Origin: Umbilicaria muhlenbergii
Taxonomy: Eukaryota; Ascomycota; Lecanoromycetes; Umbilicariales; Umbilicariaceae
Reading direction: 5' to 3'
Assembly: GCA_000611775.1 (NCBI GenBank)
Contig: KK106982.1
Span: 3,872,858 to 3,936,857 of the forward strand
DNA: 64,000 nt
Both the position numbers and the translations under genes were made by a program. Positions 20,473 to 23,246 of the stretch are shown in pieces. Below the pieces are notes generated by a model. The model did not search any database. It saw only the letters and a list, made by a program, of their open reading frames with translations, and was not told the origin of the DNA. Each line of letters opens with the position of its first letter. Position 1 is the first letter of the stretch.

Positions 20473-21766
20473 TCAGAGATTACCTCTCTCAGCTTGCTCC
20501 CGCTCGATCGCTTCAAATAAACTCTTGAAATTGCCTGCACCAAACCCTTCAAAGTTGCTTCTTGAAATGATCTCAATAAAGACGGTGGGTCTGTCCATCA
20601 CCGGCTTGCTGAAAATTTGCAGCAAGTATCCGCCTTCGTCAAAGTCGATCAGGATGTTGAGCTTCTCGATCATCTCGAAGTCCTCCGCTAGTTTCATTCC
20701 AGTAGTCTTCAGCCGCGTACGCATCGTATCATAGTAGCTCGATGGCACACTGATGAACTCGACTCCGCGGTTCCTGAGATTTGCCACACTCGTAATCATG
20801 TCGTTGGTACGAAAGGCAATATGCTGTACACCAGCTCCGTTGTAGAAATCAACATACTCCTCTATCTGCGACTTCTTCTTGCCAGCTGCTGGTTCATTCA
20901 ACGGCATCTTTACAACTTCGTTGTGAGATGCCACGACTACAGAGCGCATAGCAGAGAACTCCGTACACATGTTGGCGTCATCAACAGACCAAAAGCGATG
21001 GAAGCCAAGGCACTTCTCGTAACTAGAACCGTCAGTATGTAGATGAAGTGTGGAATGCCTGTCAAGCATACTATTCGCAAGCGGACTCCACCTGGTCCCA
21101 ATCTTGATTCCCCACGCAGTGATCGATCGTTTCCAATGGAACGTTGGGCAGATATTGCGCCACAGGATCCGCTGTCGTTGTTGGATGATACCCAGGCAGA
21201 AAGGCCCCCTTGTACCTTGAGCGCTCGATAAGGGTATGAGTTGTATTGCCAAAAGTTCTGATCACCGCAGTTACAACCTCTCCATCAACCTCGTCTGTCA
21301 GTACTGTTGGCTGCTGAACACTTCCTGCACCATTGGCGATAGCTTTTTCATAAACCACTCTTACGTCGTCCACTTCAAATGCAACATCTTTTACGGCATC
21401 GCCGTGCTTTGTCAGATGAGAGTGAATCTCCTCCAGTAGTTGTGCATCATTGTCAGGGATAGTGTCTTCGCGGTCGCTAGGGGATCTTATTGGCGATGTG
21501 AGTACGAATGTAGCATGTCCATTAGACACGACATGCGAAGCAATATATTGAGACCCTGTCTCCAGGCCACGGTATGCCAGTGGACTAAATCCCATACGGG
21601 TGATGTAATACGACGCGGCTTGTTTGGCGTTGCCGACATACCACGTTATATGGTCATACCCTCGATAATTCGGGTTGGAAGGCGACGTGGAAGGTACAGT
21701 GGAGGAAAGGGGTATCATTGAGCCATTGCTGGCAATGACGACGGGACTGTCTGCAGAAGAAGCCAT
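20473..21766 (-). CDS. 4-hydroxyphenylpyruvate dioxygenase
   Basis: Converts 4-hydroxyphenylpyruvate to homogentisate in tyrosine catabolism (Fe(II), cytosolic); 414 aa. Exons 21766-21072 and 21022-20473; the 49-nt intron splits a Tyr codon in the join [17 protein letters not shown]. The start is the ATG at 21766. Both vicinal-oxygen-chelate halves are present: N-terminal [18 protein letters not shown] and the catalytic C-terminal half. The iron ligands are visible as His216 (IDHCVGNQ), His299 (VQHIAFRT) and Glu382 (VFIEIISR). The C-terminal helix containing [13 protein letters not shown], which gates the active site, is intact. No homogentisate dioxygenase or fumarylacetoacetase gene is nearby, unlike clustered fungal loci. 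It is head-to-head with a TTC36-like gene. Confidence 0.96.
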
Positions 21767-22466
21767 GAGCAATGAGCAGCGAGAAAAGAGAAAAGTGATC
21801 AGCTTGTAGATGAAACCACAAAGCTACACGGAATAGGATGAGAAGAAACAAAAAAGTTCTCAGTCATGCTCTGCAGATATATACATGCAGACATGGAATG
21901 TTTAGAGTAAGAGAACGCCAATAGGAAGCAAGTCGGATATCAGTAGGAGAAAGCCTCTGGGCGCTTCTTAACGGACCGACAGTGGGCGAGACACAAGCGC
22001 GGACAGTTTGCCTTGTGACTGCATGACGCAGTCTTTGTGTTCGTCATCAGTGCAGATATATCAGAGTTAGTGTGGAAGAACTCTGTAATGAGTTTGTAAG
22101 GCATAATGATAATCCTATGGTAGGAGCGACGGACGTGATGCTTTGGCTGAGGAGGCTTCGGCTACTTGCGGGACCGTCCGAATGCGGTTTAGACTGTCGA
22201 TGCATAAACGTCTGATGTGTGGACGCTCATCCTCAGACACAGCAGAAGTGGGAAGGTGCAACCCCCCAGAAGAGCGACCGACTCAGTGTCGTAATCACGC
22301 TGTGATCTTGTAAATGTTAGCTCCCGGCTGCAGTGCAGAAGAAATCTTCTCTTATTCTTTTTGAAAGCAGATCGTGTTCTCCCACCAAGCTTTGCTTTGA
22401 GTTCCGTCCACCGTTGCCTATTAGCACAGTAATTGCTCATCTTTATCACGTCTGCGAATTGCTATC
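21767..22466. promoter_or_regulatory. Divergent promoter, HPPD / TTC36-like
   Basis: 700 bases lie between the two start codons, with no ORF of note. Shared regulation is plausible but no binding site is identified. Confidence 0.45.
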
Positions 22467-23246
22467 ATGTCTGAAGTGGTTGATCTTTCTTTCAATGATT
22501 CCGCAGTGCTGACGCAGCTCTTCGACCCTGAAAGCTCTCCTATATGTAGTGTGGTCGTCGATGTGTCCTTACCGAGCGATCCCGTGATCAGGGATGCGGA
22601 TCTGCTATCATCGTTGAGAATGCAAGAGAGGGAGATCATCAACCGTATAGAAGAGGCCTGGACGAATTCAGTAACGGCTGTCGCACGCACTCAAACCCTT
22701 TTCGAAGCCTACAACAGCCTTTCGTCATTGATCGACACATATCCAGAATACGCTTCCCTTCGCAACAACCGGGCCCAGCTCCTTCGAATCCAGCATGGGG
22801 ACAGCATTCTGGTCTCTTCAGAAGATTCGTTGGTGGTGCCAAACGCTTCGAGTGCGGGTCGTACGGCTCTCGAAGATCTCAACAAAGCCATCAACCTCCT
22901 GACGTCAGCAAGTCCGAATCTCGTTTCTCCGGCCCAGGGGCAAACTCTTGCTCAGGCATATACCCAACGCGCGGCGCTCTTTCATGCCAAGGCGAAGATA
23001 CTTGCGGCTCGAAAGGGAACCTTCGAAGCTCAACAACAACAAGACTGCCCGGTAAAGGGTGTGCAACACTGGGACTCCCAAGATTATGAAGAAGCAGCAA
23101 GTCGAGACTTCCTGATGGGCGGACGATACGGAAACCCAATTGGGAAAGCGTTAGCGGTTCATACCAATCCGACTGCGAAGCTCTGTGGACAAATGGTGCA
23201 ACAGGCGATGAGGAGGGAGTTTTTACCAACGACGTCAACGCAATGA
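22467..23246 (+). CDS. TTC36-like tetratricopeptide-repeat protein
   Basis: Intronless gene for a 259-aa protein. After a short N-terminal tail, TPR-type helical pairs run from about residue 65 to 185 (AYNSLSSLIDTYPEYASLRNNRA, ALEDLNKAINLL, AQAYTQRAALFHAKAK). The C-terminal block EEAASRDFLMGGRYGNPIGK followed by NPTAKLCGQMVQQAMRRE is the hallmark I associate with TTC36 (HBP21) orthologues. TPR proteins of this kind are small scaffolds or co-chaperone adaptors. In mammals TTC36 has been reported to bind and stabilise HPD, the enzyme encoded by the adjacent divergent gene, so the pairing here is suggestive. An insertion of Ser/Val residues between the first TPRs makes it longer than the animal protein. 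Confidence 0.82.
   Translation: MSEVVDLSFNDSAVLTQLFDPESSPICSVVVDVSLPSDPVIRDADLLSSLRMQEREIINRIEEAWTNSVTAVARTQTLFEAYNSLSSLIDTYPEYASLRNNRAQLLRIQHGDSILVSSEDSLVVPNASSAGRTALEDLNKAINLLTSASPNLVSPAQGQTLAQAYTQRAALFHAKAKILAARKGTFEAQQQQDCPVKGVQHWDSQDYEEAASRDFLMGGRYGNPIGKALAVHTNPTAKLCGQMVQQAMRREFLPTTSTQ

What the first reader, a model, noticed from the sequence alone, without database searches (positions are those of the whole stretch)
20473..23246. HPPD gene head-to-head with a TTC36-like gene
4-Hydroxyphenylpyruvate dioxygenase and a TTC36-like TPR protein share a 700-bp divergent promoter. In mammals TTC36 is reported to bind and stabilise HPD, and its loss causes tyrosinaemia. Finding the two genes paired in a fungus suggests an ancient functional partnership that, as far as I know, has not been described in fungi. 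The TPR protein may act as a dedicated chaperone or stabiliser of HPPD and so affect tyrosine breakdown and pyomelanin.
Basis: partly seen in the sequence, partly recalled or inferred. Interest (0 to 1): 0.75.

Follow-up and report, generated by a model that had tools for sequence, protein, structure and literature searches.

The report
Fungal HPPD beside its TTC36-like helper
In this fungus the gene for a key tyrosine-breakdown enzyme sits back to back with a gene for a helper protein that fungal researchers call HmgX; its sequence suggests that it is the relative of the animal protein TTC36, which protects the same enzyme in mammals, so the partnership may be older than the split between animals and fungi.

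Summary
HPPD (414 aa, one intron) lies at 21766..20473 (-) and an intronless 259-aa gene at 22467..23246 (+), 700 bp between start codons; one copy of each was found in the genome. The small protein matches human TTC36 (recalled sequence; about 30 residues checked against printed mouse/human DNA) along its length, including ends outside the TPR core.

The pairing is known in fungi as hppD-hmgX: Keller et al. 2011 (PMC3203155) report adjacency in most ascomycetes then sequenced and show that HmgX is needed to make homogentisate. They found no conserved domain and no human homologue. The new part is HmgX = TTC36 family; no paper in the searched library holds both names.

The mammalian mechanism (TTC36 shields HPD T382 from STK33/PELI1) cannot act unchanged: this HPPD ends at the equivalent of L381. 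Most likely direct binding and stabilisation of HPPD is the older function. The link also weakens Keller's idea that a 13-aa ascomycete HppD segment is the contact. Binding, stabilisation and co-expression are untested here, and no HmgX sequence was available for direct comparison.

The parts
20473..21766 (-). hppD / hpdA: 4-hydroxyphenylpyruvate dioxygenase, 414 aa, exons 21766..21072 and 21022..20473
   Evidence: gene model; TIGR01263 454.3 bits, cut-off 277; PDB HPPDs. H216, H299, E382 present (that these are the metal ligands is recalled).
21023..21071 (-). intron of hppD, 49 bp, GT...AG
   Evidence: the spliced protein aligns to 8jbw across the junction without a gap there.
21767..22466 (.). 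700-bp divergent intergenic region (probable two-way promoter)
   Evidence: length. CGG/CCG triplets cluster at about 22159..22187, a possible Zn2Cys6 site, untested and not compared with chance.
22467..23246 (+). probable hmgX orthologue = TTC36-like TPR protein, 259 aa, intronless
   Evidence: A. fumigatus hmgX is 771 bp without intron beside hppD (PMC3203155). No HmgX sequence was available for comparison.
22494..22529 (+). N-terminal signature ND.AVL..F.P (residues 10-21)
   Evidence: N10 D11 A13 V14 L15 F19 P21 shared; segment score 41, reached by 5 of 20000 shuffles; animal side agrees with printed mouse exon 1.
23097..23195 (+). C-terminal signature A.RDF....R.G.P......V..NP.A.LC..M (residues 211-243), outside the TPR core
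   Evidence: C-terminal segment 73; 0 of 20000 shuffles, maximum 49; best of the other 244 window ORFs 45. The animal side of this stretch is recalled, not checked against print.
21431..21484 (-). HPPD residues 95-112, holding 14 residues that are extra relative to 8xtv; possibly the 13-aa ascomycete segment of Keller et al.
   Evidence: their Fig. S1 was not seen.

Best explanation
The pair is the ascomycete hppD-hmgX module, and HmgX is the fungal form of TTC36, a small TPR protein that serves HPPD. The helper binds HPPD in the cytoplasm, probably at the C-terminal (VOC2) domain, and keeps it folded and undegraded so that 4-hydroxyphenylpyruvate is turned into homogentisate, which is broken down further or forms pyomelanin. 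SHOWN here: the gene pair, one copy of each found, an intact HPPD, similarity to (recalled) TTC36 inside and outside the TPR core, absence of the mammalian phosphosite. SHOWN by others elsewhere: HmgX is needed for pHPP to homogentisate conversion (A. fumigatus); TTC36 binds the VOC2 part of HPD and prolongs its life (mammals). INFERRED: binding, stabilisation and co-induction in this fungus, and that this function predates the animal STK33-PELI1 branch.
For: Gene models and spacing. HPPD equivalog hit. One copy of each found. Collinear TTC36 similarity: phmmer 5e-12 and 2.7e-11, SW 119 vs maximum 56 of 2000 shuffles; C-terminal non-TPR segment 73 vs maximum 49 of 20000. The window protein has 1 match at E up to 10 in 177,635 PDB sequences, a kinase at E 1.6, although human TTC36 itself matches 54 of them at E up to 0.01, TPR proteins by name or recall, with best stretches only within its residues 27-160; so the likeness is not just shared TPR character. 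About 30 residues of the recalled human sequence agree with printed mouse or human DNA. Literature: hppD-hmgX adjacency, tyrosine induction, cytoplasmic HmgX, no homogentisate from pHPP in a hmgX hmgA double-mutant extract (PMC3203155); no growth of the hmgX deletion on tyrosine as carbon source at 37 C in P. marneffei (PMC4374905); TTC36 binds HPD through VOC2 and stabilises it (PMC6753076). In this genome hmgA and fahA lie on another contig, C4, so hppD and the helper are together where the rest is not.
Against: No HmgX sequence was available, so window gene = hmgX rests on position, orientation, length, lack of intron and copy number. Pfam and NCBIfam place the protein in no family (best TPR model 12.4 bits, cut-off 24.4). 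The structure model is unusable (mean pLDDT 38). Human HPPD made in E. coli is active without TTC36 (kcat 2.2/s; PMC3739788). TTC36 has other reported partners, such as c-Myc and YBX3 (PMC12022016, PMC12594589; listing and passages), so it may not be HPPD-only. Adjacency is not strict: in P. marneffei locus tags put hmgA and hypW between hpdA and hmgX, and at 37 C hpdA is expressed in ammonium while hmgX is low; in P. brasiliensis HPPD rose at acid pH while HMGX did not change (PMC12296031). No 9-mer is shared by the hppD-hmgX, hmgA and fahA upstream regions.
Confidence: 0.7

Rival explanations
1. HmgX/TTC36 is an activity factor rather than a stabiliser: it holds the HPPD C-terminal helix closed, standing in for the 12-residue tail that human HPPD has and this fungal HPPD lacks.
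For: The window HPPD stops at L414, equivalent to human L381. In human HPPD residues N380-N383 contact the active-site entrance and cutting back to L381 leaves 42-50% activity (PMC3739788). Gate residues E254, Q375, R378 are kept (window E287, Q408, R411, read from the sequence). Keller et al. [quoted passage not shown]
Against: Human HPPD has the tail and still is served by TTC36. Deleting QEYVD, beside the gate, did not affect TTC36 binding (PMC6753076). The HPPD 1t47 (Streptomyces, recalled) also ends at this point (381 of 381).
Confidence: 0.15
2. The fungal protein blocks loss of HPPD exactly as in mammals, by hiding T382 from a kinase and an FHA-type E3 ligase.
For: Reported in mammals (PMC6753076).
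Against: The phosphopeptide is RGNLpTNM; the window HPPD ends at RGNL. A Pellino search found nothing, but it rang in no control genome, so it shows nothing.
Confidence: 0.05
3. The TPR protein is unrelated to TTC36; the likeness is chance or generic, and the adjacency only a cluster relic.
For: No curated family model matches; the animal sequence is recalled.
Against: Non-TPR ends match beyond shuffles; no PDB TPR protein is matched; hmgX genetics in two other ascomycetes.
Confidence: 0.07

Closest known systems
hppD-hmgX pair of the ascomycete tyrosine degradation cluster (A. fumigatus; Keller et al. 2011, PMC3203155)
   Same: Neighbouring divergent genes; intronless hmgX of 771 bp there, 780 bp here; an HPPD with extra N-terminal residues relative to 8xtv.
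   Different: Here hmgA and fahA are on another contig, no Zn2Cys6 (hmgR-like) domain was found in the 30 ORFs of at least 210 aa in the window, and no maiA match passes its cut-off.
Mammalian TTC36 (also called HBP21, PMC8040709) and HPD (PMC6753076)
   Same: Collinear sequence with ND.AVL..F.P, PE.AS..NNRAQ, ALEDL..A, RDF....R.G.P, NP.A.LC..M (human side recalled); partner enzyme is HPPD.
   Different: The fungal protein is 70 aa longer (259 vs 189) through insertions; its HPPD lacks T382 and the tail after it.
Tyrosine clusters of the greater Chaetothyriomycetidae (PMC3914699)
   Same: Reported to keep hppD and hmgX together, sometimes with hmgR.
   Different: The organism of this window was not identified, so membership of that group is a guess.

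Membership tests
4-hydroxyphenylpyruvate dioxygenase (TIGR01263) | full-length match above the curated cut-off | tested here: met
   454.3 bits, cut-off 277, residues 36-414 on 2-353 of 353.
4-hydroxyphenylpyruvate dioxygenase (TIGR01263) | two His and one Glu iron ligands | tested here: met
   H216, H299, E382; their role is recalled.
TTC36 | TPR core with PE.AS..NNRAQ and ALEDL..A | tested here: met
   Core score 70, 0 of 20000 shuffles, maximum 68; only ASAYN of the animal motif is checked against print.
TTC36 | N-terminal ND.AVL..F.P | tested here: met
   (5 of 20000 shuffles reach the score); animal side printed for mouse.
TTC36 | C-terminal RDF....R.G.P / NP.A.LC..M | tested here: inconclusive
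   Strong match, 73 vs shuffle maximum 49, but against a recalled human stretch that no printed sequence confirmed.
TTC36 | reciprocal best match in a multi-species profile search | not testable with these tools
   No animal or fungal proteome could be searched (metagenome scans: cap 0); four scans of genome contigs and viral contigs found no relative.
TTC36 | binds and stabilises HPPD | not testable with these tools
   Reported in mammals (PMC6753076).
HmgX | next to hppD, divergent | tested here: met
   criterion from PMC3203155.
HmgX | intronless gene of about 256 codons, one copy | tested here: met
   780 bp with stop, one match in the genome; A. fumigatus 771 bp, one copy in 8 of 8 fungi in Table 1 of PMC4374905.
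HmgX | sequence similarity to A. fumigatus HmgX | not testable with these tools
   No HmgX sequence was found in the collections or in the passages read.
HmgX | required for conversion of pHPP to homogentisate | not testable with these tools
   Shown in A. fumigatus (PMC3203155).
TTC36-STK33-PELI1 pathway | HPPD carries T382 after RGNL | tested here: not met
   Window HPPD ends at RGNL.

The most novel reading that the evidence does not exclude
HmgX and TTC36 are one ancient protein family whose original task is to keep HPPD usable in the cell. It predates the split of animals and fungi; animals later added a T382 phospho-degron to the same partnership, while many ascomycetes kept the two genes side by side. 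The mammalian phosphosite story is then a late layer, and Keller's proposal that a 13-aa ascomycete segment of HppD is the contact site loses its basis.
Probability: 0.6. Interest if true: 0.72.

Novelty: new member of a known kind. Interest (0 to 1): 0.6.

Why it matters
HmgX was described in 2011 as a protein without domains or human relatives, and TTC36 in 2019 as a mammalian HPD stabiliser. Putting them together makes one testable system: fungal genetics gives a strong phenotype (no use of tyrosine, no pyomelanin) for a protein whose loss in mice causes tyrosinaemia. It also says which part of the mammalian mechanism could be general (binding of HPPD) and which cannot (T382). The long insertions in the fungal protein may explain why an ordinary BLAST search missed the link.

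Tried and rejected
Family models: Pfam and NCBIfam gave no assignment above cut-off for the window protein. Relatives elsewhere: scans of genome contigs and viral contigs with the single protein and with the two-sequence alignment found none; these hold prokaryotes and viruses and used 6 and 2 peptide patterns, so this is only a weak sign that the family is eukaryotic. Structure: AlphaFold on the single sequence gave pLDDT 38, so no fold search was made. Co-regulation by sequence: no 9-mer shared by the hppD-hmgX, hmgA and fahA upstream regions; 2 shared 8-mers against 0.54 expected, up to 4 in 200 shuffles. Pellino search rang in no control and is dropped as evidence. maiA: 6 matches, none over the cut-off (best 97.7 of 171 bits). 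Papers naming 8JBW: 0, so its organism is unknown to me. A profile search of the PDB with the two-sequence alignment gave 23 sequences at E up to 1, mostly generic TPR proteins, and adds nothing.

Considered and rejected: that the adjacency is chance (published conservation argues against it); that the mammalian T382 mechanism applies here.

Full report
What is there. The window carries a complete HPPD gene on the minus strand (21766..20473, one 49-bp intron at 21071..21023, 414 aa) and an intronless 259-aa gene on the plus strand (22467..23246); 700 bp lie between the two ATGs. HPPD is certain: NCBIfam equivalog TIGR01263 with 454.3 bits against a cut-off of 277; 36 PDB sequences matched at E up to 0.001, 34 of them named HPPD (the others PCZA361.1 and a methylmalonyl-CoA epimerase), best 8jbw with 3.2e-177. 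H216, H299 and E382, the metal ligands by recall, are in place. In the 34.8-Mb, 7-contig genome TIGR01263 finds only the two window exons (2 of 2 matches), and the small protein finds only itself; the tool warns that such counts are lower bounds.

Is the small protein TTC36? No curated family claims it: the best TPR model in Pfam reaches 12.4 bits against 24.4, NCBIfam gives 3 matches far below their cut-offs, and among 177,635 PDB sequences the only match at E up to 10 is a kinase at E 1.6. By segment: N-terminus 41 (5 of 20000 shuffles reach it), TPR core 70 (0 of 20000, maximum 68), C-terminus 73 (0 of 20000, maximum 49); of 245 window ORFs of at least 80 aa the human C-terminal segment prefers this one (73; next 45). 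Human TTC36 itself matches 54 PDB sequences at E up to 0.01, TPR proteins by name or recall, and in all 54 the best stretch lies within residues 27-160, so the matching ends are not generic TPR likeness. The fungal protein is longer through insertions, which may explain why plain BLAST missed the link.

How far the recalled sequence can be trusted. Printed pieces agree with it: the mouse TALEN site in exon 1 reads MGTPNDQAVLQAIFNPD, the first Met with two bases that I supplied (PMC3885652, passages), and the human RNAi targets read EEREED, the overlapping REEDEV, and ASAYN (PMC8040709, passages); all are found in the recalled sequence. That is about 30 residues, 17 of them mouse. A mouse antisense primer reads LRAPSNGR in one frame, similar to but not the same as the recalled human end (LRRPRDSR). 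The C-terminal signature was not confirmed by print.

What is known. In A. fumigatus the gene beside hppD is hmgX (PMC3203155; abstract, passages and section 22 seen). Its authors report: 771-bp intronless transcript; no conserved domain; no homologue found in H. sapiens, C. elegans or D. discoideum; hppD adjacent in most ascomycetes then sequenced, in many cases apparently with a bidirectional promoter; induction by tyrosine; cytoplasmic protein; no homogentisate from pHPP in hmgX hmgA double-mutant extract. P. marneffei hmgX is single-copy and its deletion strain did not grow on tyrosine or phenylalanine as sole carbon source at 37 C (PMC4374905, passages). There the locus tags put hmgA and hypW between hpdA and hmgX, and at 37 C hpdA but not hmgX is expressed in ammonium, so adjacency and co-regulation are not strict. 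PMC3914699 (passages) found hppD, hmgX and sometimes hmgR clustered in the greater Chaetothyriomycetidae in a search of 214 fungal genomes. So the pair is known; position, orientation, size, lack of intron and copy number make the window gene the probable hmgX, although no HmgX sequence was available for comparison.

What seems new. 118 papers hold a word beginning TTC36 and 175 a word beginning hmgX (of the 30 listed, 6 concern the fungal pathway by title, others hold words such as HMGXB4); none holds both. AFUA_2G04210 or AN1898 occur in 3 papers; in two of them tetratricopeptide and TPR do not occur, and the passage of the third calls the gene hmgX only. The library holds open-licence PMC papers only. 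I recall that protein-family databases may already group fungal proteins with TTC36; that could not be checked here and would lower the novelty.

Mechanism. In mammals TTC36 binds HPD, needs its VOC2 domain, and prevents STK33 phosphorylation of T382 and PELI1-driven degradation; deletion of QEYVD did not affect binding (PMC6753076: abstract, results part 1 of 2, discussion and passages). T382 follows RGNL (peptide RGNLpTNM). The window HPPD ends at exactly RGNL (L414), so the phosphosite is absent. The part that can be general is the binding and stabilising of HPPD. Human HPPD made in E. coli is active (PMC3739788, passages), which argues for a role in stability or assembly in the cell rather than in the chemistry. 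A rival is that the helper closes the C-terminal gate: human residues N380-N383 contact the active-site entrance and removal back to L381 leaves 42-50% activity; the gate residues E254, Q375, R378 are kept as E287, Q408, R411 here. TTC36 is also reported to act on c-Myc and through YBX3 in liver cancer cells (PMC12022016, PMC12594589; listing and passages), so in mammals it may not serve HPPD alone.

Keller et al. proposed a 13-aa segment of ascomycete HppD as an interaction site because species without HmgX lack it. The window HPPD has 14 extra residues between 95 and 112 relative to 8xtv; whether this is their segment I could not see. If TTC36 is the animal HmgX, animals have the helper without the segment, and that argument weakens.

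Surroundings. hmgA is at C4:429251 and fahA at C4:520502-521828, about 91 kb apart and on another contig than hppD-hmgX; no maiA match passes its cut-off (6 matches). All 30 window ORFs of at least 210 aa were covered by Pfam scans (HPPD as the spliced protein); none carries a Zn2Cys6 domain, so hmgR is not evident in the window, although short exons could be missed. No 9-mer shared among the three promoter regions was found.

Verdict. On checking, confidence in the best explanation was set to 0.70 (from 0.72), because the P. marneffei gene order and expression and the other reported TTC36 partners had been left out.

Noticed in passing
window 37468-49726 (-): Very large HECT-type ubiquitin ligase in three long frames (HECT and UBM in one, DUF913 and DUF908 in another), Tom1/Huwe1-like by recall.
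   Followed up: no
window 51367-53559 (-): Animal haem peroxidase domain protein (PF03098), possibly a Ppo-type fatty acid oxygenase (guess).
   Followed up: no
window 20236-20520 (+): Open frame running convergently into the 3' end of HPPD, with a protein-like stretch but no Pfam match; may be a last exon or a remnant.
   Followed up: partly
window 23729-24775 (-): 348-aa frame downstream of the TTC36-like gene with no Pfam family.
   Followed up: no
window 25841-26437 (+), 26994-27908 (+), 29278-30546 (-), 30799-32260 (+), 32619-33266 (-): Ordinary neighbours: Ctf8, a cytochrome P450, a diphthamide synthesis protein, an HMGL-like enzyme, and a Gta3/GatF subunit.
   Followed up: no
G000 C5:1471846-1472445 (L012): Best maiA-like match, 97.7 bits against a cut-off of 171: either a diverged maleylacetoacetate isomerase or another glutathione transferase (guess).
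   Followed up: no
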